A DNA stretch of 64,000 nucleotides from Clavaria fumosa (lineage: Eukaryota > Basidiomycota > Agaricomycetes > Agaricales > Clavariaceae). This document shows positions 6,666-44,859 of this stretch, in pieces. Location of the stretch: positions 1,798,001 to 1,862,000 of the forward strand of contig OX637795.1 of assembly GCA_951802425.1 (NCBI GenBank), read 5' to 3'. The first letter of the stretch is position 1, and every line of letters starts with the position of its first letter. A program made the position numbers and the translations under genes. The notes under the pieces are model-generated. The model did no database searches. It was not told the origin of the DNA and was given only the letters and a program-made list of their open reading frames with translations.

Positions 6666-7514
6666 TGTCATGGCCCTATCCAGTTACCCAGCCACCTCCG
6701 AAACACCTGCAATTACCTCCAATACATCTCCAACATATCTCCACTCCAACTCTGGCACCCCCGCTCCAACTCTGCCTTCTCCGCTCCAATTCCGCTCTGA
6801 CTCCGCTCCGGGGTCCGAAACTCCGGTCCGGACTTTCGTCAGACTTCAATATCGGTCCTTCGGACCGAATGGACTTTGTTTCTAGCATGTTCCTTGGTGC
6901 TAGTCCATGGTTAGTAACCATTGGGATGATGCCCACTACCCGTGGGAACTTATTCTTTGCCTTACATGTATCATCTATGCCTTTCTCACTCCTCAGGTGA
7001 AATTATTGTAGATATTTGATATATTCATGTTTCACAGTCTGCCCTATGCCCTACCCTAGTAGCATATAAGCCCCCATGTATCTCCATGATCCTGAGTTTG
7101 AATATTAACATTATTTCTGGTCCTTGCCACTTGGTCCATGCATTAAGGGACTTCGTCCTCACTGTTCTCAACAGTCCCAACGAGTTCCACAAAACTCTGG
7201 TGGACTCCAACAGACTCCGGGCGATTTCCCCTCAGACTTCGTCCTTCCTTGTCCTGGAAAGCAAAGTACCAGCAAGGTTAAATTGGGACACATATACACA
7301 TGGTGGCACAACCCATAAGTTGAGGCCACAGTCCCAACCTTTTGACCCCCTCCTTCTAGTCCTTCTCCTTTGTGTAGAGGAGAAGTCCTTGCACAACTCC
7401 GATCCGGACTCCGACTGGACTCTGCTCCACTCCGGCTTCGCCTTTGCCACCCCTTTTTGGTCTCCTCTACACTACCCCTACTCCTGCTTTGAAGCAAAGA
7501 ATCAGATCTTAACA
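6666..7514 (+). repeat. 5' LTR of the non-autonomous element
   Basis: 849 bp, starting TGTCATGG and ending TTAACA. It carries a TATA motif (7065-7069) and, 30 bp downstream, agtttgaatat (7095-7105), which can pair with the bases just after the LTR (7515-7527). This suggests the transcript starts near 7095. Confidence 0.9.
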
Positions 7515-7527
7515 GTATATTCGAACT
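7515..7527 (+). promoter_or_regulatory. Putative self-primer binding site
   Basis: gtatattcgaact directly follows the 5' LTR. Its reverse complement contains agttcgaatat, matching the LTR-internal site 7095-7105 (one wobble) and, perfectly, the equivalent site of the solo LTR at 33473-33483. Tf1-type elements prime from their own RNA 5' end in this arrangement. Confidence 0.65.
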
Positions 7528-9722: not shown

Positions 9723-10570
9723 TGTCATGGCCCTATCCAGTTACCCAGCCACCTCCGAAACACCTGCAATTACCTCCAATACATCTCCGACGTATCTCCA
9801 CTCCAACTCCGGCACCCCCGCTCCGACTCCGCCTTCTCTGCTCCAATTCCGCTCTGACTCCGCTCCGGGGTCCGAAACTCTGGTCCGGACTTTCGTCGGA
9901 CTTCGATATTGGTCCTTCGGACCGAATGGACTTTGTTTCTAGCATGTTCCTTGGTGCTAGTCCATGGTTAGTAACCATTGGGACGATGCCCACTACCCAT
10001 GGGAACTTATTCTTTGCCTTACATGTATCATCTATGCCTTTCTCACTCCTCAGGTGAAATTATTGTAGATATTTGATATATTCATGTTTCACAGTCTGCC
10101 CTATGCCCTACCCTAGTAGCATATAAGCCCCCATGTATCTCCATGATCCTGAGTTTGAATATTAACATTATTTCTGGTCCTTGCCACTTGGTCCGTCATT
10201 AAGGGACTTCATCCTCACTGTTCTCGACAGTCCTGATGAGTTCCACAAAACTCTGGCGGACTCCGACGGACTCCGGGCGATTTCCCTTCGGACTTTGTCC
10301 TTCCTTGTCCTGGAAAGCAAAGTACCAGCAAGGTTAAATTGGGACACGTATACACATGGTGGCACAACCCATAAGTTGAGGCCATAGTCCCCAACCCTTT
10401 GACCCCTTCTAGTCCTTCTAGCTTTTGTGTAGAGGAGAAGTCGTCATGCAACTCCGATCCGGACTCCGACTGGACTCTGCTCCGCTCCGGCTTCGCCTTG
10501 CCCCTCCTTTTTGGTCTCCTCTACACTACCCTACCTACTCCTTCTTGGAGTAAAGAATCAGATCTTAACA
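9723..10570 (+). repeat. 3' LTR of the non-autonomous element
   Basis: 848 bp, nearly identical to the 5' LTR, with the same TG...CA ends. It is directly followed by the target duplication acctg, after which the interrupted RT of element A continues. Confidence 0.9.
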
Positions 10571-12301: not shown

Positions 12302-12592
12302 TATCAGACTGGGTCTCACACAACTTAAGCATAAGGTCATGACAACAATACTAAGATAAGGGGAAAAGAGTACAAAAATGGAAACGACAAAGTACTTATA
12401 GTGAGAGCCCCGGCACTTGCCGACTTTCCCACACTTGGACCCTCGGATCACGTGATGCACACAGGCCCCAGGTCATGTGATCTTACATGATTACATAATC
12501 TGACCCAGCCACAGGTCATGTGACCTTCCAACAACCCTCCCCAGTTTCTCCATAACTCCTCTTTGGGATGGCTTATGTAAGCAATCCTAACA
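12302..12592 (-). repeat. 3' LTR of element D
   Basis: 291 bp. It is about 43 bp longer than the other LTR because it keeps a segment lying between two aggtcatgtga repeats. The plus-strand left end is TATCAGAC where element C has TGTCAGAC. Confidence 0.82.
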
Positions 12593-12603
12593 TCACCCCC
12601 CTC

Positions 12604-13731
12604 TTAAGGCTGGGCGTCCTGACCAGCTAGCTTGGCCTTGTCAAGGTGGGAGAGGAAGAAGTCCCGGAGAAGCAATGTTATGATAGTGAGGTTCCCACGG
12701 GGCTCCCAAGTGTTTTCCTCCACTGGGTATCCCAACCACTTCACCAAGTACTTCACTCCATGCCCCACCTTCTTAACATCAAGCATCGCCTCCACATCAT
12801 ACTTCAGGTGGTCATCATCGATTGTAGGGGGTGGAGGGGGAGGCAGATTCTGAGAGGGGAAGGAAGGGGGATGGTAAGGTGTCAACAGCAACTCATTGAA
12901 GACCCAATGGATGCGCCAGGCCCAAGGGAGCTTGAGGCGATACCTGGCAGGTCCCACCTTCTCTTCAATTGCAAAGGGGCCCGCACGCTTGTTGTCAAGC
13001 TTTTTAGAGGGACAGTCCATCTTTAAGTTCCTTGTGTCCAGCCAGACCAGATCTCCCACAGAGTACTCACGACTTGGGCACTTTCCCATGTCGTAGCTCT
13101 TCTTCATCGCTGCTGCTGCTTTCTCCATAACCTCCTTGGCTGATCTTCGGGATTCCGTGAGCTTAGCCAGCCACTCATCTGCCACCAGGTTCACTTCTGT
13201 GGGTGGGCGGAGTCCCCCATTCCATAGGTGCTGACCGTACTTGAGGAAGAAGGGTGTCTGTCCAGTTGCAGAGTGCTCACGGTTGTCAAGGGCGAATTCT
13301 GCAGTGGACAACCACTCAGCCCAGTCATCCTGCAGGTGATCCACATAGGCCCGGAGGTAGATCTCCATCTCCTGGTTTGCCCGCTCCATCTGCCCATCAG
13401 TCTGTGGGTGGAAAGCTGTACTTGGGTTTGCTTTCACTTGTATCATGGAGTAGAACTCCTTCATGAATCAAGACACAAACTGGGATCCCTGGTCACTCAC
13501 AACCTTATGTGGGACTCCATGATCATGGAATACCCGGTCCCAAAGGAGGCGTGCGGCTCCAAGTCCTGTGAGGTCAAGTCCAATCCCTTCCAGCAGTGTG
13601 CGCTTTGTGAACTTGTCAACAATGATGAGGATGGCATTGTGTCCACATGAGAGGGGGAGGGGCCCCACAATGTCCCACATAATCACTGACCAGGGACCAT
13701 CCGGAATGGGGTGTGGGTGGAGTGGGGCCAC
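12604..13731 (-). pseudogene. Element D integrase and chromodomain
   Basis: From 13731 downward: integrase core (WDIVGPLPLSCGHN, DKFTKRTL, SDQGSQFVS), a stop TGA at 13468-13470, then FHPQTDGQMERANQE with the third acidic residue. The integrase C-terminal part and a chromodomain follow (YDVEAMLDVKKV...YLVKWLGYPVEENTWEP), ending in DAQP at 12604. The chromodomain probably targets integration to modified histones, as known for chromoviruses. The Arg codon after NLKMD is TGT (Cys) here. Confidence 0.88.
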
Positions 13732-16094: not shown

Positions 16095-16139
16095 AGGGAT
16101 GGAAAGGGGGCTGGCACACTTCTTCTCCCCAGTGGGAGA

Positions 16140-16990
16140 CCTCCTCTCTCTCTCTCACAGCTCTATGCAGGCTTGGAGCCATGCAATCTCTTTCTCATAT
16201 CCCTCCGCCATTTGGGGGGCACATGGTGCTGCCCGGGTTTGGGCCCTTGGGACCTGCAGACGTGTATCAGGCAGGGGGGAGAAACAGACAGCATGGCCAG
16301 TCTGGTGGCATCGGAAACAACATCTCTCATCAGCAGGGGCCCATCCTTGGGCCATGGCCACATCTGGAGTACACAGTAGAGGGGCCACAAGAGGTCGCAA
16401 AATGGTCATGGCAGGTCGTGGTAGGGTCGCGGTGGGTCGTGGTGGGTTGTGGTGTCCGTTCCGTGAGTATCCCATCCAGTTGCCTTTGCTGGGCATCAAG
16501 CCTCTCAGCCAGCACCTTCCATTCTCCATATGTCTCTGGCATCGGGGAGACACCATAGATTCTCTCCAACAACCTCCTACTCAGGTTCAACTCCAGCCAA
16601 TGGACTAGGATTCCTGAGTCCTTCTCTGCACTCAACTTTGCCTGTTGGAACAGTGTCTCAAATTTCGTGAAGAACTCCGGTGCTGTCATGGCACCCTGTT
16701 TCAGCTCAGCAATATCGGCAAGGGCAGTCGCACGGTCATTTGGGTCATCAAATGTGCACTTCATCTCCTCCACAAACTCTGCCCAGGTTCTGGCCTCACC
16801 ACTACCCAGGATCTCTTCCACCTTCATATTCGCCCACTCTGCAGCAAATCCTTCTCCAGTAATTTTGCTCAGAGCAAAAAGGACCTTCACCAGGTCCACA
16901 GCATAGACAGTCGGGTTTGCCATAAACAGGAGGTGAAGGGATCAGAGGAAAGTACAGAAGTTCCTTTTCTGCCCATCAAAGGGGGCAACA
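16140..16990 (-). pseudogene. Element D gag
   Basis: Gag begins near 16990 (LAVAPFDGQKRNF), has a TGA in a codon that is Arg in element C, then a long open stretch from MANPTVYAVDL at 16923. It includes a capsid-like region (FVEEMKCTFDDPNDRATALADI) and a decayed zinc knuckle (CFRCHQTGHAVCF). Element C lacks about 60 residues of the middle part present here. Confidence 0.82.
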
Positions 16991-17575
16991 GCTAGGTCCA
17001 GCATTCTGTAGCACTGTAAAATAAAATTCTGGGCCTTCGGCACTCAGGATTTCTTCGATCTCTTAACAGTCCTGTCCTCTTAGGCTGCTCTTCTAGGTAC
17101 TTATGTACCTATAGAACTCTTATTCTATGAAACTATTGGTAGTGTGGGGCCCAAATGGTGTCCCAGGTGGTCACTCCACAACTCCTAATGAGTTGCCTGT
17201 GCGCCCTTCTGACAATGGTCACAGAGCAAGGGCCCTGTCCACTGGACCAGGAAACTACAGAAAGACTATGTAGAGGGCCTTTCCTTGCCCTGTACATTAC
17301 ACAATTCACTGGTATGTAGCTGTAAAACAAAGTTCCAGGCCTTGGGCACTCAGTATCACTTGGGGAGGGTCACAGTTGACTTCCTCCTGGTCTGGTCACG
17401 TGTATCTACACACAGTAAAAATTTCACACAGTTCTGTTACACACCACGGGCAGGGTAAAGGAGAAGAGGATGATAGGGGCTGAGCTGTGACAACATGTCA
17501 CAGTTTGAAATTAAGGGTCCAGGCTAGCCAGGTTAGGACACAGGGGCTAGGGTGGACAGGCGGATCTTAGTATTA

Positions 17576-17823
17576 TATCAGACTGGGTCTCACACAACTT
17601 AAGCATAAGGTCATGACGACAATACTAAGATAAGGGGAAAAGAGTACAAAAATGGAAATGACAAAGTACTTATAGTGAGAGCCCTGGCACTTGCCGACTT
17701 TCCCACGCTCGGACCCTTGGATCACGTGATGCGCCCAGGCCCCAGGTCATGTGACCTTCCAACAACCCTCCCCAGTTTCTCCATAACTCCTCTTTGGGAT
17801 GGCTTATGTAAGCGATCCTAACA
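17576..17823 (-). repeat. 5' LTR of element D, with putative self-primer pair
   Basis: 248 bp. On the minus strand it holds a TATAAG motif and, 43 nt further, atcttagtattg (plus 17620-17631). The bases that follow the LTR on the minus strand, taatactaagat (plus 17564-17575), are complementary to it with one G-U pair. Element C shows the same layout with a compensated base change. Confidence 0.82.
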
Positions 17824-17979
17824 CCCTTCTACCTAGAGTATGGCTGGCACCCATGGAACAGTGGAATTCGGCCACCCTCAGAAGTGAACCCTGCGGCAGA
17901 TGAGTGGATGGCCAAGCTCATGGACTCGAAGAGCAGCCAAGGAAGCGATGGGGAAAGTGGCAGATGCAATGAAGGCCAG
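17824..17979 (+). pseudogene. Element A part 3: integrase C-terminal fragment
   Basis: Encodes FYLEYGWHPWNSG and following residues up to the codons for NEGQ, continuing the reading broken at 12301. It ends in gccag, the target duplicated by element B. Confidence 0.85.
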
Positions 17980-18680
17980 TGCTACGACCCCATCTGCTTG
18001 CATAAGCACGACCCCCGCTCTGGACTCTGAGCTCCGTACCAACTCCAATCCGCTCCGCCGTAATTCCATGTGCTCCACTCCGCACCTTCATCGGACCTTA
18101 CTCCACTGGCCTTTGGACTGTTCGGACTTCATTCTAGAACCTTCTCCCTCCATCCCCTCATTCTGTTTACCATTGAGAGGATACCCTTGACCCATGGGAG
18201 TCGCGTTTTTTGTTGTTGTTTCTTTGTTCCATGAAAATTGCACAGGCACATGTGGTGAAACTCTCCTAGTAATTTGATAAGTACATTGTTTCACATTACT
18301 CCTATACTCTGTCCTTGCAGTATAAGTTTCCACCTGTATCTCCCTGCTCCTCAGTTCGAATATTAATGTCTCTTGATCCTAAATATCTCTGAGCTTTCGT
18401 CCTCATCATCCTCGACGTTCTCCATGTCATCCGACCAACTCCGACCAACTCCGACAGACTCCAATCAACTTCGGAGTTTTGACTTACATTCTGATCCCCT
18501 CTTAGGTATTGTTCTTGTTTGATAAATAGGGACAAGTATATACGTGGTGGCACAACACATACGTTGAGGCCGCAGTCCCATAAGTCTCTTTCCTTTTGTT
18601 TACTTCTCTGTTTCTCCGATAGAACATCTCCACTCCGCTCCACTAACCCCTTCGCCGCTAACCTTGTTAGGACCTTGACA
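17980..18680 (+). repeat. 5' LTR of element B
   Basis: 701 bp, TGCTACGACC...CCTTGACA. TATAAG at 18321-18326 lies 32 bp upstream of agttcgaatat (18353-18363), the likely transcript start. It lacks about 25 bp present in the 3' LTR before agaacatctcc. Confidence 0.92.
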
Positions 18681-18693
18681 GTATATTTGAACT
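18681..18693 (+). promoter_or_regulatory. Putative self-primer binding site of element B
   Basis: gtatatttgaact follows the LTR directly. Eleven bases pair with agttcgaatat at 18353-18363 with one G-U wobble. No tRNA 3'-end complement (TGG...) is seen at this position. Confidence 0.65.
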
Positions 18694-18720
18694 TCAAACC
18701 TCGTATATACAAATTCAACA

Positions 18721-19875
18721 ATGCCTACTACACGATCCGATGCTCAATTTCCACCTCCTGTTGCCGATGACATTGACATTCCAGAACTGGCCGACAATAC
18801 TCCGACTCCAAGTGTGTCCAGACCCCCGGACCATGACGAAGAGTCAGACCCCTCAGTCACTGACAACGACGACAAGCTAAATGAACCTCCAACACCTCGA
18901 GCCGAACGTGAACTAACTCCGGCGTGTCTCCTTCAGAAGATCATTGACGCCAACAAGCGCCCGGAGACGGTTAAACCACAAGACCCCGATACCTTCGATG
19001 GCTCGGATGCTAAGAAGTTGAAAAGCTTCTTGGTCCAATGCCAATTGAACTTCCTTGATCGCCCTAGAGTGTTCAAGTCCGATTCTCATAAGGTACGCTA
19101 TGTCCTTTCCTTTCTCCAGGGCTTCACCCTGGAATGGTTCGAACCGATGATTCTGGATGGTGAAAGCCATCTGGTTCTTTCGAACTATAAGATGTTTGTT
19201 GCTCAACTTACAGAGAACTTTGGTCCTTACAATGCGATCCGCAAGGCAGAGTTCGAACTCGAACACCTCCGGATGCGCGAGGACCAGAAGTTGACGAAAT
19301 ATACCATTTCATTCAACAGATTCATGTCCATTGTCCATTGGGATGAGTACGCGTTGCAGCGGCAGTTCTACAAAGGACTTGCTAGCCGCATCAAGGACGA
19401 ACTGGCCCACATTAAACGCATGGATACACTCCGCGGACTCTGCGAGCAAGCCAGTGCGATCGATGGCCATTATTTGGCTCGGCAGCAGGAGATCTCTCGG
19501 GACTCTGTTAAGGCTCCGACACCTAACAACACCATCAAAAAGGAGTCTTCGGATAGTTCCAAGTCCCCGAACACTTCCGGCACTAATACCAAGTCCGAGA
19601 AACCATTGGAAAAGCGTCCAGTGAACTCCGTTCCAAAGGCCGCAGAGGGCTCTGCTAACTCTGGTAGCTCCAGCAACACAAAGAAGGCTCATCTGGGTCA
19701 GGATGGAAAACTGACTCCAGAGGAATGCCAACTGCGTTTCGATAATAATCTGTGCCTATTCTGTGGAATAGCAGGCCACAAAGCCAATGAGTGTCATAAG
19801 CGGACCTCGCAGGCCATTGCCAGTGCTGCACAAATCACCTCCGACAGAGATGACTCCATGCCAAAAAAAGATTGA
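18721..19875 (+). CDS. Element B Gag
   Basis: 384 codons, uninterrupted. Residues 1-65 are acidic and proline-rich. About 80-230 match the retrotransposon gag/capsid pattern (FDGSDAKKLKSFL, ALQRQFYKGLASRIKDEL). A serine/lysine-rich linker follows, then one zinc knuckle near residue 345 (C-x2-C-x4-H-x4-C in CLFCGIAGHKANEC). It builds the particle and binds element RNA. The ATG is the first in frame, about 40 bp after the LTR. The stop overlaps the pol frame at a run of seven A. Confidence 0.9.
   Translation: MPTTRSDAQFPPPVADDIDIPELADNTPTPSVSRPPDHDEESDPSVTDNDDKLNEPPTPRAERELTPACLLQKIIDANKRPETVKPQDPDTFDGSDAKKLKSFLVQCQLNFLDRPRVFKSDSHKVRYVLSFLQGFTLEWFEPMILDGESHLVLSNYKMFVAQLTENFGPYNAIRKAEFELEHLRMREDQKLTKYTISFNRFMSIVHWDEYALQRQFYKGLASRIKDELAHIKRMDTLRGLCEQASAIDGHYLARQQEISRDSVKAPTPNNTIKKESSDSSKSPNTSGTNTKSEKPLEKRPVNSVPKAAEGSANSGSSSNTKKAHLGQDGKLTPEECQLRFDNNLCLFCGIAGHKANECHKRTSQAIASAAQITSDRDDSMPKKD
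19863..19869 (+). promoter_or_regulatory. Candidate -1 ribosomal frameshift site between gag and pol
   Basis: The last gag codons are CCA AAA AAA GAT TGA. The heptamer A AAA AAA is in the correct register for a -1 slip, after which reading continues as AGA TTG AGC, the frame of the pol ORF. The gag stop is two codons past the heptamer. Confidence 0.7.
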
Positions 19876-22800
19876 GCAGCCCAGAGAGCACAGTACAACT
19901 CTCCGGCTGCTCCAACTCTGATCGTACTAAACCTATATTTGATACCCTTTCCTTTCATCATTCTCTTTCTCTTCTTGCCTCCTCTCCTTCTATTTCTTCT
20001 CCGTTCAAAGCAATGATAGACTCTGGCACTGAACTTTGTTTCATTGACACCAAATTTGCTTCTCGTTTCCATCTTCCGAAAACTCCAGTGACCCCTCGGG
20101 AGGTCGTTTTTATTAACGGGACCACCTCCGTATGGGTCACCGAAGCGGTCTGGTTATCCATTCGGCTATCCGCCATGGATCCGACCAACGTCTTGTGTGT
20201 AGTTACCGATCTTGATCCCTCTAGTGATGTGATCTTGGGAATGAATTGGCTGTTCCAAAACAACCCGCTGGTTGACTGGATCACTGGCCAGATAAAGCCC
20301 AGACCATCTATGAATGAGGAAAAAACTCCGAAATCTGATCCGGAGGGTGCACTGGCCAGCACTCTCCATTCCGTCCCTCTGTCTGTCTCCGCTCCGTGCA
20401 CTCCAGTTCAAATGTTGTCTGCAGAGACTCCGAACCAAGCCCAGACTCCGTCTCCATCTCTGCTTCTGTCTCCGTCTTTGACTCCATCTCTGACCTTTCC
20501 GTCCACTCTTTCTCTCCAGGAGACACCCAAGGTTTCTTTTGTGAATGCTGCTGCATTCGCCATGGCTTGTGGACTTCGCGGGTCCCAAGTCTTTGGCATG
20601 ACATTGTCAAGCGAGTCCACGCGTGCGGCCTCCACTTCGTTCAACGTTCCCGACACCACCCCCCAGGATCTCCTCTCCGTTCCGGAGGAGTACAGGGACT
20701 TTCCAGATGTCTTCAGTAAAAAGAAGGCAGATACCCTTGCTCCGCATCGACCGTATGATCTAAAAATCAACCTGCTGGATGGCCAATCCCCTCCGCCAGG
20801 TGCGGTCTATTCTCTGTCGCAGTCCAAACTCAACAAACTCCACGAGTTTCTGGACGAACACCTCCGCATCGGATTTATCCATCCGAGCCATTCTCCACAC
20901 GGAGCACCTGTGCTCTTTGTCTGGAAGAAGAATGGAACACTCCAATTATGCGTTGATTTCCATGGTCTAAATAAATTGACCAAAAAATACCGTTATCCAC
21001 TTCCGCTTACTAAAGGTCTTCTCAATGTTCCAGGAAAAGCCCGAATCTATACAAAACTCAACCTCTGACATGCATATCACCTGGTCTGTATCGCTGAGGG
21101 TGATGAATGGAAGACCGCATTCCACACCTGATACAGATCCTTCGAATGGTGTGTGATGCCCTTTGGGCTCACAAACGTGCCTGCCACATTCCAGCACTTC
21201 ATGAACGATATATTCTCCGACCTCCTCAACACGTTCATGGTCGTCTACCTCAATGACATCCTCATTTACTCCGAGGATCCAGAACAACACATTGAGCATG
21301 TCCGAGAGGTACTCCGAAGGCTCTGGAAGCACGGTCTCTTCCTGAACCCGGCTAAGTGTGAATTTCATGCTGAAACCGTGGAGTATCTCGGATTTGTTTT
21401 ATCTCCATCTGGACTTTCTATGGACATGGCTAAAGTGAAAACTATACAGGATTGGCCAACTCTGCAGAAGGTCAAGGATGTCCAGTCCTTCCTTGGGTTT
21501 GCTAATTTCTACCGCCACTTCATCCATGGCTATTCTGAGATTGTCGCTCCAATGAACCACTTGATGCATAAAAACATTGAGTGGCATTGGTCCGACGATT
21601 GCCAGTCCACATTTGACTATCTGAAAACTGCGTACTGCATGGCTCCGATCCTCTTGCACTTCATTCCTGGAGCTCTGCTGATAGTTGAAACAGATGCCTC
21701 GGACTACACTGTCAGCACGATACTCTCTACGGTCGCCTCCGATGGTGAAGTCCATCCTACGCTTTTCATTCCCGCATGCTAGGTGTCTCCGAACTGAACT
21801 ATGACACCCACAATAAGGAACTCCTTGCTATATTTGAGGCGTTTACCGCTTGGAGGCACTATCTCGAAGGTTCTGAAACTCTGGTCGACGTTGTTACCGA
21901 CCACAAGAACCTCGAGTACTTCTCCACGGTCCGCCTACTCACCCAGCATCAAGCCAGGTGGTCAGAGTTCCTTTCCCAGTTCAATTTCGTGATCTGATTC
22001 TGCCCTGGGTGCCTCGGAATGAAACCCGATGCATTGACTAGACGTTGGGATGTCTATCCCAAAGAGGGGGATAGCGACTATGCCCGCGTCAATCCGCAAA
22101 ACCTCCAGCCAATGTTCTCCAGCGAACAATTGATATCGTCTCTCCAAGCTTCATTGCTTTACATACCTGCACTCTGCGTGTCATTTGTGATTGATGATCA
22201 TCAACTCTGAGAGGACATCCAGTCTGGACTCTTGCTCGATCCTGTGATTGTCCTGATCCTAGAAGACCTCCACTCAAACTCTGCGGACCCTAAGTGGTCC
22301 ATGGACGATGACGGACTTCTCCGCGAGCGTGGACAGATTTATGTACCGGACATCAATGACCTCTGACTCCACGTTTTACGTGCGAGACATGATCACCCAC
22401 TCGCTGGACATTTCGGTCGGACCAAGACTATGGCCTTGGTCTTCAGGGATTATACCTGGCTGAAACTCCGAGGATTTGTATCGGACTTTTGCAAATCTTG
22501 CACAACTTGTGGTAGGGCAAAAGCCCCTCGGCATAAGCCATATGGAACGCTCAAGCAGCTGCCCATACCCGAGAAACTGTGGAATTCCATTTCGATGGAT
22601 TTCATCAAGCAACTCCCTGAGAGCTCCGGTTTTACCACAATATTGGTGGTTGTTGATAGGTTTACGAAGCAAGGGATCTTCATCCCGACAACTGACGAAG
22701 TGAACTCCACAGAGTTGGCCCATCTATTCGTATTCCACGTCTTCTTGAAATATGGAGTTCCGTCACATGTCACCTCTGATCGCGGCTCCGAGTTCATTTC

Positions 22801-23674
22801 CCATTTTTTTTTGCTCGTTGGGTAAAGTCCTGGACATGACTTTACACTTCACCTCCAGATATCATCCGGAAGGCGACGGACAGATGGAGCGGACTAACCA
22901 GACGTTGGAACAGTACCTCTGTTGTTACTGCAATTACCAGCAGGACAACTGGTTGCAACTCCTGCCCCTGGCCGAGTTTGCCTACAACAATGCCCCGAGC
23001 GCCACCACTGGGGTTTCTCCGTTCTTTGCAAACAAGGGCTATCACCTGAATATCTCAGTATTCCCTGAACGCGAAGTAACTTCAGTCTGTGCCCAAGAGC
23101 TCGCTGTAGACTTGGATCAGCTGCACCAAGAACTCCATAACCAAATTGCTGAGGTGCAGAGTCGCTATCAGGGTCCGGCGGACAACCGTCGGACTCCGGC
23201 ACCGGAGTTTAAGGTCGGAAACCAAGTCTATGTTAAGGCGAAGTTTTTCCGTATGACCAGACCCTCCAAAAAACTCTCCGACAAGTTCCTCAGACCTTTC
23301 AAATCATCGGAGAGGCCGGTTCGCACTCCTTCATACTCTGGCTCCCCATTGCCATGCGAGCCATCCACCCCGTCTTCCACATTTCCATGCTGGAGCCAGT
23401 CACTCCGAATACAATTCCAAATCGTACCATCTCCCCACCTCCTCCAGTAGAGATCGACGGAGACCTAGAGCACAAGATCTCCGAAGTGCTCGACTCCAAG
23501 ATCGACAAACGCCGCACCTGTAAACTCCTATACCTGGTGCGGTGGTCCGGATATGAAGGAACCGATGAGGAAACATCCTGGCTTCCCGCTATGGAACTTG
23601 TTCATGCCTCCAAGGCCATTTTGGATTTCCACCAAGCTTATCTGAACAAGCCCGGACCTCTCAATACCCTCTAG
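19872..23674 (+). pseudogene. Element B Pol: protease, RT, RNase H, integrase, chromodomain
   Basis: Protease IDSGTELCFID (about 20030). RT begins near DFPDVFSKKKAD; after TGA stops at 21066 and 21129 it continues with SFEWCVMPFGL and the active site, which reads YLND (21246-21257) instead of YxDD. RNase H is at 21690-21990 (ETDASDYTVS; ELNYDTHNKELLAIFEAF) with a frameshift near 21755. Further TGA stops lie at 21995, 22208 and 22364. The integrase has the HHCC finger (22380-22510), SMDFIKQL, SDRGSEF and HPEGDGQMERTNQ, with a poly-T frameshift at about 22808. A last frameshift near 23300 precedes a chromodomain (KLLYLVRWSGY...ETSWLP). Five of the six stops sit where Arg is expected. Confidence 0.92.
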
Positions 23675-24069
23675 ACCTTTCTCCGTTCACTCCGATACCC
23701 CAAAATTTCTCTTATGTTTCTACTTACGTACATTTTCTGTTCTATACTACTCCGTCTCTTTTCTCCGTTTTCTCTGAAACCCCCCCCCCAAAAAAAAAAT
23801 CTGTATTTCCGTCTCTCCGTCTCTCCGTCTCTCTCCTGATTCCTTTTCTCTGAAAACTCCGAACTCCTGATTCCTTTTCTCCAAAAACTCTGAACTTTTC
23901 TTCCTAGTCCAACTCCGAATCTCTCTTCATCTTCTCTGTCTTGTCTTACTTTATTTTCCTTTCACTCCGCTTACTTTTCACTCAAGTTCAAAGATAAAAA
24001 ACAATAAAATTATAAAAAGAAAACAATAAAAGAAACAATAAATGCAATGTAGATAATTTTTTTTATTTT

Positions 24070-24970
24070 TTAGGCGGAGGGGGGTGAGCCGGGTGATGCT
24101 TGTAAAACTGTTTCGGGCTCCTTAAGCCCGGACTCCGCTCCAACTTCTCCCTCCTCCACCTCCGCCCCTTTCTCTGCCTCCGCACCCATCTCCACTGCTT
24201 TCTCCGCCTCCATGTCCTTCTCCGCTCTCGCTTCCTCCACCTCCCTCTTCTCCGCCTCCGCCTCCTTTTCCGAGCCCGCCACCTCCACCACCATCTTCTC
24301 CGCCTCCTCCTTCTCCTCCCCCGCTCCCCGCTACCCCATCAAAAATTTCCGGAGGATCTTCCGATCCTCCGCCACTGCCTTCCGCTCCACCCTCATCTCC
24401 TTCCGCTCCGCCCTCGCCTCCTTCCGCCACTCCTCCAACTCGAACACCCCATGGACCACCAACCCGGTCCGCTTCGCCTCCGCCCTGTTCACGTCCGCCC
24501 GTGGCACCCGCACCTCCTTCACCTCCTCCTCCAACTCCACCACAGTCTTCTTCGACCGTGCAGAGCAGAATTTCTTCCACTCCGGCCCCTCCGCCTCTCC
24601 GCCCCCGCACTGCTGCTTCGCCGCCACACATGCGACACACACGGTGCCCCGCCCTCCACTCGGCCACACACACCCCATCCCGAGCTGGCATACGCTTCCT
24701 CCCCGTCCCCTGCACCTTCGCAATTTCCTCCGCCCTCCGCTTCACCTCCACCGCCCTCGCCCTCTCCATCTCCTCCTGCCACATCTTGTCTGCAACCTCC
24801 CTCTTCTTCCACTCCTCCTCCTCTTGCGCCTTGATCTGGCACATGAGGACCGCGATCTCGGGGTCCTCATCCTCCACGTGCGACTGCGCAGGGACAGCGA
24901 CCATGGGGCATGGTCGAGGGTGGGGAGGCCGGCTGGGCCCCGCTCCGGGTGTGCTCGGGTTTTGAGACAT
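24070..24970 (-). pseudogene. Antisense ORF in element B: coiled-coil protein with Cys motif
   Basis: Starts at ATG 24970 (MSQNPSTPGAGPSRP). A long glutamate/lysine-rich helix follows (QIKAQEEEEWKKREVADK and onward), then a basic stretch. After a one-base frame change near 24660-24710, a C-x2-C-x6-C motif (CVACVAAKQQC) and a second charged helix (ELEEEVKEVRVPRADV...ILRKFLMG) follow. A further Glu/Ala-rich segment lies at 24294-24070. It sits between pol and the polypurine tract, in reverse orientation. The intact gene at 30980-32472 has the same place and architecture. Function unknown; nucleic-acid binding through half of a zinc cluster is a guess. Confidence 0.65.
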
Positions 24971-25205
24971 TGAGGTTTTTAAAGAAAAAAGTAGAGATTG
25001 CCTGTGCTAGGGGCTAGTGATGATGGTAGCAGATTAAAGAAGAGAAAAAGTGTTGCACGACGCGCGTGGCCTTTTGACCCCCAAAAAAATTTCGGACTCC
25101 ACTCGACATGCTGTGAAACTCCAACACTAACTTGTTATGGGAGCCATGTGTTCACGCAGACTTTGGCCACAGGGTCTCAGGGGTTTGACCCTAAGAGGGG
25201 GATAC

Positions 25206-25931
25206 TGTTACGACCCCATCCGCTTGCATAAGCACGACCCCCGCTCCGGACTCTGAGCTCCATACCAACTCCAATCCACTCCGCCATAATTCCATGTGCT
25301 CCGCTCCACACCTTCATCGGACCTTACTCTGCCGGCCTTTGGACCATTCGGACTTCGTTCTAGAACCTTCTCCCTCCATCCCCTCATTCTGTTTACCATT
25401 GAGAGGATACCCTTGACCCATGGGAGTCACATTTTTTTGTTGTTGTTTCTTTGTTCCATGAAAATTGCACAGGCACATGTGGTGAAACTCTCCTAGTAAT
25501 TTGATAAGTACATTGTTTCACATTACTCCTATACTCTGTCCTTGCAGTATAAGTTTCCACCTGTATCTCCCTGCTCCTCAGTTCGAATATTAACATCTCT
25601 TGATCCTAAATATCTCTGAGCTTTCGTCCTCATTGTCCTCGACATTCTCCACGTCATCCGACCAACTCCGACCAACTCCGACGGACTCCGATCAACTTCA
25701 GAGTTTTGACTTACATTCTGATCCTCTCTTAGGTATTGTTCTTGTTTGATAAATAGGGACAAGTATATATGTGGTGGCACAACACATTCATTGAGGCCGC
25801 AGTCCCATAAGTCTCTTTCCTTTTGTTTACTTCTCCGTTTCTCCGATATTGGACTCTGACCGGACTCCAATAGAACATCTCCACTCTGCTCCGCTAACCC
25901 CTTCGCCACTAACCTTGTTAGGACCTTGACA
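25206..25931 (+). repeat. 3' LTR of element B
   Basis: 726 bp, TGTTACGACC...CCTTGACA, followed by gccag. It differs from the 5' LTR by scattered transitions and one 25-bp indel. Confidence 0.92.
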
Positions 25932-26062
25932 GCCAGCTATGATAAGGGAAAGCAGCCAAGTCAGGAATACTTGAAGGGAGACTTAGTCTGGTTGGACACA
26001 TGGAACTTAAAAATGGACTGACCCTCCAAAAAACTTGACAACAAGTGAGCAGGGCCCTTTGC
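25932..26062 (+). pseudogene. Element A part 4: last integrase fragment
   Basis: Resumes with YDKGKQPSQEYLKGDLVWLD, reads TGA after NLKMD (about 26019), then KKLDNK, stop, AGPF, and loses homology near 26062. The chromodomain and 3' LTR of element A are missing. Confidence 0.85.
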
Positions 26063-32609: not shown

Positions 32610-32914
32610 TGTCAGGATCGCTTACATAAGCAGGTTGGAAAGGCCAAGAAAGGATCGCAAAAGAGTTGCGGGAAGTTTGCGGACGAGTCATGTGACCCGA
32701 ACAGGTGGTGGATTACATAATGGGAAAATCACGTGACCCGGGCCTGGACGCATCACGTGACGCACGGGGTCCGAGCGTGGGAACGCCGGCAACTCCCGAA
32801 CCGCTCGCTATATACACCACATTGTTTTCTTACTTGTACCCTTTTCCCCTTATGTTAGTATTGTCATCATCGACCTTATGTTAAGTTGTGTGAACCGTGA
32901 GACTAAGTCTGACA
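32610..32914 (+). repeat. 5' LTR of element C
   Basis: 305 bp, TGTCAGGATC...GTCTGACA. TATATA at 32809-32814 lies 43 bp upstream of atgttagtattg (32852-32863), which is perfectly complementary to the 12 bases after the LTR. Confidence 0.92.
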
Positions 32915-32926
32915 CAATACTAACAT
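32915..32926 (+). promoter_or_regulatory. Putative self-primer binding site of element C
   Basis: caatactaacat is the exact reverse complement of 32852-32863. In element D the pair is taatactaagat with atcttagtattg, so a C/G change on one side is matched on the other. Confidence 0.75.
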
Positions 32927-33043
32927 CAACCCCTGTCCGCCCTAGCCCCGTGTCCTAACCCGGCTAGCCTGGACCCCTATCTCAAACTGTCACACTCTGT
33001 GACAGCTTATCCCCCTCATCCTCTTTCTCTTTACCCTGCCCAC

Positions 33044-33895
33044 TGTCACGGTCCTATCCAGTCACCCAGAACACCCTTAATCACTTTGAAATACCTCTGA
33101 TACACTTCCTAGTGCCTCCGAAATACCTCTGATGCATCTCCGATGCATCTCCGCTCCAACTCCAGCACCTCCGCTCCGACTCCACTCCAGGGTCCGAAAC
33201 TCCGGTCTGGACCTTCGTCGGACTTCGATATCAGTCTTTCAGACCATATGGACTTTGTTTCTAGTATGTTCCCTGGTGCTAGTCCATGGTTAGCAACCAT
33301 TGGGACGATGCCCACTGCCCATGGGAACTTATTCTTTGTCTTACATGTATCACCTATGCCTTCCCACTCCTCAGGTGAAATTACTATGTACATTTGATAT
33401 ATTCATGTTTCACAGTCTGCCCTATGCCCTACCCTAGTAGCATATAAACCCCCATGTATCTCCATGATCCTCAGTTCGAATATTAATGTTATTTCTGGTC
33501 CTTGTCACTTGGTCTGTGCATTAAGGGACTTCGTCCTCACTGTTCTCGACAGTCCTGATGAGTTCTGCAAAACTCCGGCGGACTCCGACGGACTCCGGGC
33601 GATTTCCCTTCGGACTTCATCCTTCCTTGTCCAGGAAAGCAAAGTACCAGCAAGGTTAAATTGGGACGCGTATACACGTGGTGGCACAACCCATAAGTTG
33701 AGGCCATAGTCCCACCCCCTTTGACCCCCTTCTAGTCCTTCTCCTTTGTGTAGAGGAGAAGTCCTTGCGCAACTCCGATCCGGACTCCGACTGGACTCCG
33801 CTCCACTCTGGCTTCGCCTTTGCCACCCTCCTTTTTGGTCTCCTCTACACTACCCCTCCCACTCCTGCTTTGAAACAAAGAATCAGATCTTAACA
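33044..33895 (+). repeat. Solo LTR of the non-autonomous family inside the leader of element C
   Basis: 852 bp, TGTCACGG...TTAACA, related to 6666-7514. It is flanked by cccac (33039-33043 and 33896-33900). It contains TATAAA (33443-33448) 30 bp before agttcgaatat (33473-33483). It lies between the primer site and gag of element C, splitting the leader that is intact in element D (17400-17460). Confidence 0.93.
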
Positions 33896-34423
33896 CCCAC
33901 GGTGTGCAACAGAACCATGTGAAATTTTTACTGTGTGTAGATACACGTGACCAGACCCGGAGGAAGTCTACTGTGACCCTCCCCAAGAGACACCAAGTGC
34001 CAAAGGCCCGGAACTTTGCTTTACAGCTACGTACCAGTGAATCGTGTAGTGTACAGGGCACGGAAAGGCCCTATACATAGTTTTTCTGTAGTTTCCTGGT
34101 CCAGTGGACAGGGCCCTTGCTCTTGACCATTGTCAGAAGGGCACACGGGCAACTCACTAGGAGTTGTGGAGTGACCACCTGGGACACCATTCGGGCCCCA
34201 CACTAGCAACAAGTTTTATAGAATAAGAGTTCTATAAGTACCTAGATACATAGAGAGCAGCCTGAGAGGACAGGACTGCTAAGAGATCGAAGAAATCCTG
34301 AGTGCCCAAGGCCTGGAATTCTATTTACAGTGTCTGCGTCCGAGACCGGGTCGAGCCCAGCTCCCCCCCGATTCCCCCGTTACTGACGTCCCCGAAACCC
34401 CATCACCACCACCAGGGTCTGTG

Positions 34424-35255
34424 ATGGCTGACCACGTCGCCCCGCCTGAAGTCCATGCCACGAGGCTGGATTTAGTCATCGCCCCATTCGATGGGCAAAA
34501 AAGAAATTTCCGTACATTCCTCCGGTCACTCCACCTCCTGTTTATGGCAAATCCGATAATCTATGCCATGGACCTGGCAAAGGTCCTCTACACCCTCAGC
34601 AAAATTACCGGTGAGGGGTTTGCCACAGAATGGGCAAATGTGAAGGGAGAGGAAATCCTGGGTAACAACGAGGTTGGAACCTGGGCAGAATTTGTGGAAG
34701 AGATGAAGCGAGTGTTCGATGACCCGAACGACCGTGCGACTGCCCTCGCAGCCAATGCCAGAGACCTATGTGCAGTGGAAGGCACTTGCCAAAAAGCTAG
34801 ACACTCAGCAGTGTTGCCTCGATGGAGTCATCGCACAACAGAACTCTGTGCGTCCTGCTCTGCCCGCAACCAGCTGCCCCCTCCCTCAACAAACCCGCTT
34901 CGCCCCAGCCCCCCGTCCCTTCCTGGCCCAGCCTCTGGCCCGCACCCCTGCCCCTCCCACCATGCCGCGTCCCACCAATGCCGGTGATGCCATGGTGGTG
35001 GATCGTGCCTGTGCCCCTGGAGTGTTGTGCACCTGCTTCCGATGTGGCCAAGCTGGTCACATGGTGAGAGATTGCCAGCTCCAGGACACACGTCCGCAGA
35101 TCCCGAGGCCGCAGGTCTGCGCCGTGGAAAGCCAGGCACGTAGTGCAGAGGACTATGAGAACGAGATCGCACTGCTCCAAGACCGCCTGGATTTGCTCGA
35201 GAGAGAGAAGAGGGCTCCTGTTGAGGAGCCGGATTTTGGAGACGAGGCCCAGTGA
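34424..35255 (+). pseudogene. Element C gag, with internal deletion and frameshift
   Basis: Starts MADHVAPPEVHATRLDL, runs to NDRATALA (about 34750), then jumps frame to MPETYVQWKALAKKLD. Compared with element D about 60 residues are missing and the frame changes at the junction. The C-terminal part has an intact zinc knuckle (CFRCGQAGHMVRDC, about 35035-35080) and a Glu/Arg helix, ending at TGA 35253-35255. Confidence 0.85.
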
Positions 35256-38200
35256 GTCCGAACTGGAGTCTCAGGAGTAGATATCCCAGCCCCCCTCCCA
35301 TCCCTGTACCCGCAGCTAGTATCCCAAAATACACTATCTTGCGGCAGAGACACACCCGGATTGGGGCTGAGGTGAAGGACAAAGCGGAAACGGAAACCGC
35401 TAAAAGTGAAATACCGAAAAGAGAAAAGGGGACTAGCAGCCAAGTGGAGCCAACAAAGCACCTTGCACCCTATTGCATATGCCCCAAGAGCTCTCCATCC
35501 AGGTGCACCTGGAGGCTCTCAGCACTGGCGAAGGGGCAACTACGAAAGCCCTTGTCAACTCAGGCTGCACCAACTGCTTTATGGACTTGGAGTGGGTGAA
35601 AAAAGTGGGATTGGAACCATCTCCCTTGCTGAATCCAATCACCATGTATAATGTGGATGGAACACAGAACAGAGATGGTAAGATCCGGTATGGGATGGAG
35701 CTGCTTGTGACAGTTGGTGACCACCAGGAGCGGATCCACTTCCTGCTAGGGAAGACTCAGTCCCACACGGCGATCCTTGGGCATGATTGGCTAAAGCGTC
35801 ATAATCCAGAGATTGACTGGGTGAAAGCTGAAGTAAGGCTCACCCGCTGCCCCAACTCCTGTGCCTCCTCCCCACACAGCCACCGGTCCCCTGTTCGACC
35901 CTCAGGTCCACCAAAAGCGAGTACCCTGGCCTCGGCCAGTATCCCGGACACCCGTTTTCCCAACACTGGCCCTACCCCTGATTGGCCCAGCCGCTACCCT
36001 TTGGTTTTTAGTGAAGCAAAGTGGGATGAGCTCCCCCACTCCCGCCCTGACTTTGATATCAAAATCGAGTTTAAAACAGACCCTGGACACCTCTCCTCTA
36101 AGCTATACTCTCTGACGCGAGAAGAGATGGTGGAAATGAATCGCTGGGTGGATGAGCAGCTAGCTTCTGGACGAATCCGACCTTCGAAGTCCCCGTATGC
36201 GAGCCCCTTCTTCTTCAAACGTGAGAAGGACAAGCTGCGGTCGATTATCGATTACTCTAGGCTGAACTCGTATCTAATCAAAGACAAGTACCCCCTCCCC
36301 CTCATATGAGACACTGTGGATGTGTTAAAGGGGGCGACCATCTATTCCAAGATTGATGCGAAGGGAGGTTTCCCATCAATGCAGGTCTGGCCAGAACATC
36401 AGCACCGCTGTGCTTTCCTAATGCCTTGTGGACTCTTCGAACCGGCAGTTATGTGGTTTGGGCTGCAGAATGCACCTGCAACCTTCCAGCGCTTCATGAA
36501 CCATGTGTTGAGAGAAGAGATTGCAGGGGGGCATGTCTGAGCCTATGTCGATGATGTTATAGTGTTTGCAGAGGATTTGGCTACACATCGGTATTGGATG
36601 GATCAGGTCTTGAAGAAGTTTGGGGAGAATGGCCTGTGTCTCAGACTCAGCAAGTGCGAGTTTGAGAAGAGTGAGGTTTTCTTCCTGGGGATGAAGATCT
36701 CCCACAACCATCTAGAGCATGACCCAGCTAAAGGCGCGGCGATCCGTAACTGGCCCAGGCTGAAAAATGTGAAAGAGGTACAAAGATTCAATGGGATGCT
36801 GAACTACCTCCGCCGGCACATCCCGAATCTCTCTGCCTGGGCAAAACCACTCTTCCGGCTGACAGGGAAAGTCCCGTGGAGATGGGAGGAGGAGGAGGAA
36901 GCAGCCTTCCAAGATCTCCGCCTGGCACTAGTATCAGTCCCGGTCTTGGCTCTACCACAAGACAAAGGGAGATGGAAGGTAGAAACGGATGCGAGCAACT
37001 TGGTGACTGGAGGAGTTCTCTCACAGCAGCAGGTGGATGGGACTTGGAGAGTTGTAGACTACATCTCCAAAGCCCTCACTGCAGCCGAGAAGAATTACGA
37101 TGTGTACGACAAGGAGTTCCTGGCTGTAATCCAGGCACTACGCGAGTGGCGGGCTTACCTGATTGGGGTGGAAGAGACTATCGAAATCTGGACGGACCAT
37201 GCTAACCTCCAGTACTTCCGGAAGCCCCAGAAGTTGAAACCGAGGCAGGTCCGTTGGGTTGGAGAGCTCCAGTGCTTTGACTTCGAGATCAAGTACCATA
37301 CTGGGAAGTCAAACACAAAAGCGGATGCACTCTCACGGAGGCCAGATTATGGAGAGATGGTGGAGGAGGATGCACCAGTACAGGTCTTCCCAGAGGCTGA
37401 GACCTGCACATCGTTCACATTGGAGATGGAGATGCTACTCCAGAAAAACAGCGCAGTATATGTGCAGAAGCCGGAGGAGCTTGATGATGAGTGGACAAGA
37501 GATCGGATGGGACTCTGGCGGAAGGCAGAAATCACTTGGGTGCCCCCAGAAGCACGTGAGGCAGTGCTCACCTTTGAGCATGACCTCCCCATCGCAGGGC
37601 ACCCTGGTCCACAGAAACTGAGGGTGGCTCTACTGAGGTCCTACTGGTGGGTGGGCATGGTGAAGGATTCCAATCGGTATGCAGGTGGATGCGAGACATG
37701 CCAATGAATCAAGCCTGATCGTACCAGGCACGCCGCTCCGCTCCATCCACACCCTGTCCCTGAGAGCCCCTGGGCAGTCATCTCTTGGGACATTGTTGGG
37801 CCTTTCCCCCTCTCACGTGGTCACAATGCAATCCTTGTCATTGTCAACAAGTTTACAAAACGAACTCTCATCAAAGCTATTGGCCTTGACCTCACGGGAC
37901 TTGGTGCTGCTTGGATCCTTCGAGGCCGGGTCTTCCGCGACCATGGAGTCCCGCAGAAAGTTGTGAGTGACCAGGGAACCCAATTTGTGTCCAGATTCAT
38001 GAGGGAGTTTTATGGGATGATTGGAGTTAAGGCGAACCTGAGCACTGCCTTCCACCCACAAACAGATGGACAGACAGAGCGGGTCAATCAGGAGGTTGAA
38101 GTGTATCTCCGGGCCTATGTTGACCATCTGCAGGATGATTGGGCAGAGTGGCTATCCACAGCCGAATTTGTGCTCAATAACTGTGAGCACTCAGCCACTG

Positions 38201-38859
38201 GATTCACACCTTTCTATCTGGAGTATGGCCGGCACCCTTGGAATGGTGGTATCTGGCCACCCTCTGAAGTGAACCCTGCAGCAGACGAGTGGATGGCCAA
38301 GCTCACAGAATCCCAAAGAGCAGCCAGGGATGCAATGGGGAAGGCGGCAGATGCGATGAAGGCTAGCTATGATAAAGGAAAGCACCCGAGTCATGAATAC
38401 TCAAAGGGGGACTTAGTCTGGCTGGATACCCGGAACCTGAAAATGGATTGACCATCCAAGAAGCTTGACAACAAGCGGGCTGGACCCTTCACTATCGAAG
38501 AGAAGGTTGGACCAGCAGCATACCGACTCAAGCTCCCCCGAGCATGGCGCATTCACCGGGTTTTCAATGAGTTGCTACTCACCCCGTATATTGCTCCCTC
38601 TTTCCCTTCCCAGAACTTGCCTCCACCCCCACCCCCCACGATTGACGATGACCACTTGGAGTATGAGGTGGAGGAAATTCTTGATGTCAAGAAGGTTGGA
38701 TGGGGAGTGAAGTATTTGGTGAAGTGGTTAGGATATCCTGCAGAGGAGAACACCTGGGAACCTCGTCACAACCTCACTAACGTTGCACTGTTGCTCCGGG
38801 ACTTCTTCCAGCAATACCCTGACAAGGCGAAGTTGGCAGGTCGAGACGCCCAGCCTTAA
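35256..38859 (+). pseudogene. Element C Pol: protease to chromodomain, broken by TGA codons
   Basis: The protease has Asn in place of the catalytic Asp (LVNSGCTNCF, AAC at 35557-35559). RT with YVDDVIVFAEDL is intact around 36545. RNase H is at 36960-37330. Integrase: zinc region to 37700, WDIVGPF, SDQGTQF, HPQTDGQTERVNQE. Chromodomain 38660-38770 (YEVEEILDVKKV, YLVKWLGYPAEENTWEP). Apart from an early frame change before 35473, the long frame is broken by four TGA codons (36307, 36538, 37705, 38449), at three of which sister copies support Arg. It is otherwise the best-preserved member of its family in the window. Confidence 0.92.
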
Positions 38860-38870
38860 GAGGGGGGTGA

Positions 38871-39177
38871 TGTCAGGATCGCTTACATAAGCAGGTTGGA
38901 AAGGCCAAGAAAGGATCGCAAAAGAGTTGCGGGAAGTTTGCGGACGAGTCACGTGACCCGAACGGGTGGTGGATTACATAATGGAAAAATCACGTGACCC
39001 CCGGGCCTGGACGCATCACGTGACGCACGGGGTCCGAGCATGGTAACGCCAGCAACTCCCGAACCGCTCGCTATATATACCACGTCGTTTTCTTACTTGT
39101 ACCCTTTTCCCCTTATGTTAGTATCGTCATCATCGACCTTACGTTAAGTTGTGTGAACCGTGAGACTAAGTCTGACA
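38871..39177 (+). repeat. 3' LTR of element C
   Basis: 307 bp, nearly identical to the 5' LTR, with TG...CA ends. Confidence 0.92.
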
Positions 39178-44634: not shown

Positions 44635-44814
44635 CTTACATAACGTGAATGATAGTTATTTATTATTTATCTTACATAACTTGAATGATAGTTATTTATT
44701 ATTTATCTTACATAACTTGAATGATAGTTATTTATTATTTATCTTACATAACTTGAATGATAGTTATTTATTATTTATCTTACATAACTTGAATGATAGT
44801 TATTTATTATTTAT
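44635..44814 (+). repeat. 36-bp AT-rich tandem repeat, five copies
   Basis: Units cttacataac-ttgaatgatag-ttatttattatttat repeat exactly five times. The 36-bp length keeps one frame open across the array, but nothing else suggests translation. Confidence 0.92.
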
Positions 44815-44859
44815 TTTACGAAAATATGTGCCTGCCGGTTGTGTTTGGTCCGTATCACA

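What the first reader, a model, noticed from the sequence alone, without database searches (positions are those of the whole stretch)
32852..32926. Self-priming signature in chromovirus C, with covariation against element D
In C, 12 bases after the 5' LTR (32915-32926) are the exact reverse complement of LTR positions 32852-32863, 43 bp after a TATA motif. In D the pair is at 17564-17575 and 17620-17631. Between the two elements one base of the primer site differs (C versus G) and its partner differs to match (G versus C). Tf1-type elements prime reverse transcription with the 5' end of their own RNA, which requires exactly this pairing. The compensated change argues for selection on pairing.
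Basis: partly seen in the sequence, partly recalled or inferred. Interest (0 to 1): 0.8.

Follow-up and report, generated by a model that had tools for sequence, protein, structure and literature searches.

The report
Self-priming retrotransposons in a fungal genome
These jumping genes of a fungus appear to start copying themselves with a piece of the front of their own RNA instead of a borrowed tRNA, a mechanism already known from Tf1 of fission yeast, and one hybrid copy seems to be joined inside that very primer.

Summary
The pairing is real, and reading it as Tf1/sushi-type self-priming is well supported, with corrections. The conserved duplex is 10 bp, not 12: R-start ATSTTAGTAT with PBS ATACTAASAT, 2 nt beyond the LTR end (59 of 60 best-hit copies). 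C's two extra pairs are private to its 5' LTR; its 3' LTR and 29 of 30 C-type copies read CG there. D pairs 11 of 12 plus a G·T. Genome-wide, base 3 is G/C at 208 sites, C/G at 381, unmatched at 3. But a tree of sampled copies needs only three changes of the PBS base, and copying the primer into the PBS could restore pairing without selection. Elements E and F in the window have an unrelated 11-nt primer in the same layout. Most interesting: the C/C-mismatched copy L085 has a D-type U3 and base 3 but is C-type from base 11 on, a junction inside the primer, as strong-stop transfer after primer cleavage predicts. That is one clear case only. RNA ends are untested. Known mechanism, new members.

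The parts
32610..32914 (+). Element C 5' LTR (TGTCAGG...CTGACA)
   Evidence: Repeat with 38871-39177; ends confirmed on another C-family copy with 5-bp target duplication GTTGC (L026/L071)
32809..32814 (+). TATA motif, 43 bp before the presumed RNA start of C
   Evidence: D has TATAA also 43 bp before its R-start
32852..32861 (+). Presumed self-primer of C (R nt 1-10, ATGTTAGTAT)
   Evidence: Pairs with 32917-32926; all ten pairs kept in 59 of 60 sampled copies of both subfamilies together
32862..32863 (+). R nt 11-12 (TG here; CG in the 3' LTR and in 29 of 30 C-type loci): variable, outside the conserved duplex
32886..32891 (+). U5 TTGTGT, candidate partner of the LTR end plus spacer (ACACAA in C, ATATAA in D with G-U pairs)
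   Evidence: Short pairing in the consensus fold and by sequence; not in the minimum-energy folds of the single C and D leaders
32900..32910 (+). Small hairpin AGAC-TAA-GTCT before the LTR end
   Evidence: not in the fold of D
32915..32916 (+). 2-nt spacer between LTR end and PBS (CA in C, TA in D, GT in E and F)
32917..32926 (+). Primer binding site of C (ATACTAACAT)
32935..32974 (+). Conserved leader hairpin GTCC..CTAGCC/GGCTAG..GGAC after the PBS; role unknown
38452..38856 (+). C integrase C-terminus: Tf2-1-like SH3 domain and chromodomain
   Evidence: PF24626 E 1.1e-12, PF00385 E 3.3e-15
38871..39177 (+). Element C 3' LTR; its R-start at 39115 reads ATGTTAGTATCG
17576..17823 (-). Element D 5' LTR (TGTTAGG...CTGATA)
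   Evidence: six D-type LTR ends, the window's included, carry CTGATA before different flanks
17622..17631 (-). Presumed self-primer of D (ATCTTAGTAT)
17564..17573 (-). Primer binding site of D (ATACTAAGAT), after spacer TA at 17574-17575
12302..12592 (-). Element D 3' LTR
18353..18363 (+). Presumed self-primer of element E (AGTTCGAATAT), 32 bp after TATAA
   Evidence: Pairs at 11 of 11, one of them G-U, with 18683-18693
18683..18693 (+). PBS of element E (ATATTTGAACT), 2 nt after the LTR end TTGACA; E LTRs 17980-18680 and 25206-25931, target duplication GCCAG
7095..7105 (+). Presumed self-primer of element F (AGTTTGAATAT), 30 bp after TATAA
   Evidence: Pairs at 11 of 11, one of them G-U, with 7517-7527
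7517..7527 (+). PBS of element F (ATATTCGAACT), 2 nt after the LTR end TTAACA; F LTRs 6666-7514 and 9723-10570, target duplication ACCTG

Best explanation
C and D are Tf1/sushi-type chromoviruses that prime reverse transcription with their own RNA. Transcription starts about 43 bp after the TATA box at the A of ATSTTAGTAT. The first 10 nt fold back on the PBS, 2 nt beyond the LTR. RNase H would cut near nt 10/11; the 10-mer primes strong-stop DNA through spacer, U5 and the rest of R; that DNA moves to the 3' R, so that U3 and the first 10 nt of R are then copied from the acceptor RNA, while the PBS comes from the first RNA or from a copy of its primer. Shown here: the pairing, its conservation and extent, its compensated states, the element anatomy, and one recombinant whose junction lies inside the primer. 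Inferred: RNA start, cleavage, priming and transfer.
For: All ten pairs in 59 of 60 best-hit copies. Genome table of base 3 and its partner: G/C 208, C/G 381, G/G 2, C/C 1. D-type bodies with G/C occur (7 of the 50 sites listed). The minimum-energy folds of C and D contain the primer:PBS helix, z -4.6 and -6.0. Chromodomain plus Tf2-1-like SH3 domain in both. E and F, with another 11-nt primer, keep the layout LTR-CA, 2-nt spacer, PBS, with TATA 30-32 bp before the primer. The C/C copy L085 has U3 diagnostics 30 D: 1 C: 2 other, base 3 D, bases from 11 on 22 C: 1 D: 1 other; 0 of 61 reference copies are U3/U5 mosaics by a leave-one-out test.
Against: No transcript ends, strong-stop DNA or cleavage data. 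Of the three duplexes of the Tf1 'pretzel' only the central one is firm; a short U5:LTR-end pairing appears only in the consensus fold and the third was not found. Eight of the ten pairs never vary in the 42-row alignment and double changes are few. The fold of E is weak (z -1.4, 6 of 100 shuffles as good) and the primer helix is missing from the centroid of F. Only one of three mismatched copies is a clear recombinant; L083 is partial and L084 unclear, and some matched D-type copies (L035, L079, L080) also have a C-like proximal U3. With other alignment settings the proximal U3 of L085 is 13 D: 3 C. The reference copies are best hits near the centres of their subfamilies, which makes mosaics among them less likely.
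Confidence: 0.9

Rival explanations
1. The matched bases are kept not by selection on pairing but by copying: plus-strand strong-stop DNA copies the primer, so that a changed R-start is written into the next PBS.
For: Follows from how PBS sequences are regenerated in LTR elements (established knowledge). Bases 11-12 of C-type copies vary (CG, TG, CA, one CC) while the opposite spacer bases stay CA, apart from one CC: the coupling stops at nt 10.
Against: Cannot be separated from selection with these data; both end at the primer's end. [quoted passage not shown]
Confidence: 0.45
2. A tRNA or tRNA fragment primes these elements and the LTR complementarity is incidental or regulatory.
For: The E/F primer AGTTCGAATAT resembles the tRNA T-arm motif GTTCGAAT (recalled). 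Host tRNAs were not scanned beyond the window, which has none, so internal tRNA matches are untested.
Against: None of the four PBSs begins with TGG, so a CCA end cannot pair. Two unrelated PBSs each match their own LTR at a place 30-43 bp after a TATA box. The C/D match is exact at 589 sites.
Confidence: 0.04
3. The 208/381/3 table is mere shared ancestry without functional pairing.
For: Copies within a subfamily are near-identical and the tree needs few switches.
Against: The exact 10-mer complement is rare in shuffled LTRs. The PBS base changes at least three times on the tree of sampled rows. E/F repeat the layout with another sequence. Sliding the partner by 1-3 columns leaves 24.5-59.5% of cells paired against 99.8%.
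Confidence: 0.03
4. Copy L085 arose by DNA recombination or gene conversion between integrated elements and its junction fell inside the primer by chance.
For: One clear case. Mismatched copies were picked for study, so a junction between base 3 and the PBS partner was expected if recombination was the cause; bases 4-11 are about 8 of some 70 positions (my estimate).
Against: The junction coincides with the predicted edge of strong-stop DNA; U3 as a block is D-type, U5 plus leader as a block C-type.
Confidence: 0.3

Closest known systems
Tf1/Tf2 of Schizosaccharomyces pombe
   Same: First bases of the mRNA complementary to the PBS (passage of PMC7175516); chromodomain integrase; Pfam's Tf2-1-like SH3 domain is found in C and D.
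   Different: The Tf1 primer is given as 11 nt with a cut between bases 11 and 12; here 10 nt are conserved in C/D and 11 in E/F. The three-duplex structure was only partly recovered.
Tj1 of S. japonicus, Tosmo1-3 and Tcry1 of other fission yeasts
   Same: Predicted self-primers in the 5' LTR; [quoted passage not shown]
   Different: Their 5' LTRs always end in CA by the figure legend; D-type LTRs here end in TA. Not compared at sequence level.
Tcn1 and marY1 (fungal members of the Tf1/sushi group)
   Same: Fungal chromoviruses; Tcn1 was proposed to self-prime (passages).
   Different: Not compared at sequence level here. One study found no sign of self-priming in the spikemoss element SM-Tcn1.
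Ty3 of Saccharomyces cerevisiae
   Same: Best match among solved structures for C's RT-RNase H-integrase piece (7q5b, E 1.1e-44).
   Different: Ty3 uses a tRNA primer (recalled); the PBSs here lack TGG.

Membership tests
Tf1/sushi self-priming chromoviruses | Ty3-type pol with chromodomain | tested here: met
   Chromo and SH3_Tf2-1 in C and D; RVT_1 in C and D; RT_RNaseH and Integrase_H2C2 in C
Tf1/sushi self-priming chromoviruses | PBS complementary to a stretch of the 5' LTR at the expected RNA start | tested here: met
   10 bp in C/D; 11 bp, some with one G-U, in E/F
Tf1/sushi self-priming chromoviruses | No tRNA CCA match (no TGG) at the PBS | tested here: met
   CAATACTAAC, TAATACTAAG, GTATATTYGAAC follow the LTRs; internal tRNA fragments not tested
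Tf1/sushi self-priming chromoviruses | Three-duplex 'pretzel' RNA structure | tested here: inconclusive
   Primer:PBS duplex in the folds of C and D; a short U5:LTR-end pairing only in the consensus fold; third duplex not found
Tf1/sushi self-priming chromoviruses | Transcript starts at the self-primer | not testable with these tools
   Only a TATA box at 43 bp (C, D) or 30-32 bp (E, F)
Tf1/sushi self-priming chromoviruses | RNase H cleavage after the primer and cDNA primed from it | not testable with these tools
   Indirect only: junction of recombinant L085 between nt 3 and 11
Tf1/sushi self-priming chromoviruses | Placement of the RT in the clade | not tested
   No tree with named clade members was built
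LTR retrotransposons in general | TG...CA LTR ends and 5-bp target duplication | tested here: met
   C family GTTGC, E GCCAG, F ACCTG, a D-type solo LTR CATAT; but D-type LTRs end in TA, and C and D of the window themselves show no duplication

The most novel reading that the evidence does not exclude
The genome records the self-priming cycle directly: U3 plus the first 10 nt of R travel as one block and U5 plus PBS as another, so hybrids between subfamilies are born with a mismatched primer and PBS, and later rounds repair the PBS by copying the primer. Base-pair swaps would then spread by recombination and copying rather than by point mutation and selection, and the edge of the block at nt 10/11 would show the cleavage site without biochemistry. 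(Lowered from 0.3 after rechecking: matched D-type copies L035, L079 and L080 also have a C-like proximal U3, so L083 counts for less.)
Probability: 0.25. Interest if true: 0.6.

Novelty: new member of a known kind. Interest (0 to 1): 0.4.

Why it matters
As far as I know, self-priming has been worked out by experiment mainly for Tf1; elsewhere it is read from sequence. A fungal genome with several hundred paired copies in two sequence states, a few mismatched copies and a second, unrelated primer is a natural data set in which primer length, cleavage point and the renewal of the PBS can be tested by counting. It also warns that compensated changes in self-primed elements do not by themselves show selection.

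Tried and rejected
Rejected: the 12-bp exact match as a family feature. Rejected: reading the E/F base differences as covariation; all but one (the last PBS base of L113) are C-to-T or G-to-A within TTCGAA, as CpG decay would give. Rejected: reading the 2x2 table as hundreds of independent events.

Led nowhere: tRNA and Rfam scans of the window found nothing. The 3' LTRs of the three mismatched copies were not in the stretches fetched, so their second LTR could not be read. One search was meant to find C-type bodies with a D-type primer but mostly matched D copies read backwards; of its 100 listed rows (of 383 matches) one was such a copy, L085 itself. Of the 20 E/F stretches, R-start and PBS were captured together in eight, all F-type (L105-L110, L112, L113); in the other twelve the R-start was missing or mis-anchored, so for E the pairing rests on the window copy alone.

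My errors: the first wide pattern had a wrong gap length and returned 0, corrected. Sampling: the 60 loci are best hits, not random ones; the mismatched and D-body G/C rows of the tree were chosen on purpose; 42 of 50 distinct rows were aligned for the structure counts; one search demanded TTG and CAA, so its 31 of 31 G/C sites say little.

Full report
What is there. The window lies in a 48.8-Mb genome of 17 contigs. Element C spans 32610-39177 with LTRs of 305 and 307 bp; element D lies on the minus strand at 12302-17823. Both carry pieces of Ty3-type gag-pol, a chromodomain and a Tf2-1-like SH3 domain. C's frame is broken by in-frame stops: five stop-to-stop pieces from 35437 to 38859 follow each other in one frame.

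The pairing. Bases 11-12 are CG in 29 of the 30 C-type loci and TG in one, which is the window's C itself; C's own 3' LTR has CG. TG, CA and one CC occur among further sites. The opposite spacer bases stay CA, apart from one CC. The conserved duplex is therefore 10 bp, set 2 nt beyond the LTR end.

Is it more than chance. Shuffling single letters of the LTR gives the needed 10-mer in 3 (C) and 8 (D) of 20,000 shuffles. A blind scan of both strands of the window for exact 10-nt pairs behind an LTR-like end with a TATA box upstream finds exactly C and D; the reversed control finds one and the complement control none. Without the TATA demand it finds 26, most in one inverted repeat near 56 kb, against 7 and 1. 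In the fetched loci, with TATA, 81 hits of 11 kinds stand against 2 and 9 in the controls. Sliding the PBS by 1 to 3 columns drops paired cells from 99.8% to 24.5-59.5%.

Covariation. A pattern that leaves primer and PBS open has 555 sites in the genome and none in the control; the first 100 are listed. Among sites with the other nine pairs exact, base 3 and its partner are G/C in 208, C/G in 381, G/G in 2 and C/C in 1 (the patterns are each other's reverse complement and list the same three sites, and those of 76 and 77 count each site once per strand). Sites with any other change in the 10-mers are not in these counts. G/C also occurs on D-type bodies (7 of the 50 sites listed). On a tree of 84 LTR-plus-leader rows with the two bases masked, the primer base changes at least six times and the PBS base three times. 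Starred branches separate D-type rows with C/G both from basal D-type rows with G/C and from later G/C rows inside the clade, but the bootstrap had not settled and several of these rows have long branches. Of four independent pairs on starred branches, on average 1.7 change together, 2.3 do not differ and none goes the other way; too few for a test. So there is coupling, with few independent events.

Why this does not prove selection. In LTR elements the PBS of the new copy can be copied from the primer. In a self-primed element the primer is the R-start, so a changed R-start can be written into the next PBS. Selection and copying predict the same table and both stop at the end of the primer. 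The coupling here stops at base 10, which suggests a 10-nt primer (inference). Tf1's is given as 11 nt with a cut between bases 11 and 12 (PMC7175516, passages).

The mismatched copies. If strong-stop DNA ends where the primer was cut off, then after transfer U3 and the first ten bases of R come from the acceptor RNA and the rest from the donor. A hybrid of C and D would then carry primer and PBS of different types. L085 (contig C2, C/C) is such a copy: at positions that separate 30 C-type from 31 D-type rows, its U3 is 30 D, 1 C, 2 other; base 3 is D; from base 11 on it is 22 C, 1 D, 1 other. Best BLAST hits agree: U3 91% to a D copy, U5 plus leader 97% to a C copy. With fewer reference rows and another alignment setting its proximal U3 is 13 D to 3 C. 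None of the 61 reference rows is such a mosaic, but they are best hits near the centre of their subfamilies. L083 (G/G) has a proximal U3 that is mostly C-like (12 to 4) over a D body; however, matched D-body copies L035, L079 and L080 also lean to C there (9:6, 9:5, 9:5), so this is weak. L084 (G/G) has a poorly matched, mainly D-like U3 over a D body. One clear case is suggestive, not proof: the copies were chosen for their mismatch, so the junction had to fall between base 3 and its PBS partner, and about one in nine such places lies in bases 4-11 (my estimate). [quoted passage not shown]

A second primer. E (17980-25931) and F (6666-10570) have intact 5-bp target duplications. Their PBS, GT then ATATTYGAACT, pairs with AGTTYGAATAT in the LTR, 30-32 bp after a TATA box; both window copies pair at 11 of 11 with one G-U. 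Of eight F-type copies with both parts captured, three pair fully, three have one G-U, L106 has one mismatch, and L113 one G-U and one mismatch. For E only the window copy was read in both parts. The same layout with an unrelated sequence is, to me, the best evidence that the layout is functional.

RNA structure. The minimum-energy folds of C and D contain the primer:PBS helix (z -4.6 and -6.0). E folds weakly (z -1.4); F's helix is in its minimum-energy fold (z -3.1) but not in its centroid. U5 TTGTGT could pair with ACACAA (C) or, by G-U, ATATAA (D) at the LTR end plus spacer; a short version of this is in the consensus fold but not in the single folds. It would correspond to one of the two side duplexes of the Tf1 'pretzel' (PMC10085805, passages). 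The other side duplex was not found. A leader hairpin (32935-32974) is predicted in both subfamilies.

What is known. Self-priming is described as a common feature of Tf1/sushi elements and was proposed for Tcn1 of Cryptococcus (PMC6317226, PMC7175516, PMC10085805; passages only). The primary Tf1 papers I asked for are not held and were not read. The searches listed no title or abstract start about covariation of self-primer and PBS; I read passages of eight of the listed papers, so I make no claim of priority.

Verdict. A known mechanism, well supported by sequence, with new family members in a fungus. The copy number, the two matched states and the primer-junction recombinant make it a useful natural test case.

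Noticed in passing
window 12302-12592 and 17576-17823 (D-type LTRs); L031, L045, L046, L059: D-type LTRs end in CTGATA, i.e. TG...TA instead of TG...CA, before different flanks; the spacer changed from CA to TA as well, and copies with CTGATA followed by CA exist.
   Followed up: partly
L020-L037 (C-type copies): Several C-type copies are identical or nearly so over the 191-bp LTR-leader query, which suggests recent activity.
   Followed up: no
window 6666-10570: Element F has long LTRs (849 and 848 bp) and only about 2.2 kb between them, with a tandem duplication at 7602-7929; possibly non-autonomous.
   Followed up: no
window 33044-33895: An F-type solo LTR sits in the leader of element C, downstream of the conserved hairpin.
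   Followed up: partly
window 17821-26059: Element E sits between two pieces that align to adjacent parts of C, as if inserted in a remnant of a C-like element.
   Followed up: no
window 1034-3704, minus strand: WD40 protein with 126-bp DNA repeats, most copies 92-98% identical to the reference, and a sub-threshold NPHP3_N match in the next ORF, like fungal NLR-type genes with homogenised repeats.
   Followed up: no
window 55840-56558: Near-perfect inverted repeat: arms of 197 and 115 nt, 99% and 97% complementary, about 100 nt apart at the centre.
   Followed up: no
window 44635-44855 and 59391-59558: Tandem repeats of 36 bp and 24 bp.
   Followed up: no
L086, L088, L089: Mainly C-type U3 and U5 with a D-type leader: further mosaics whose junction lies after the PBS.
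   Followed up: partly
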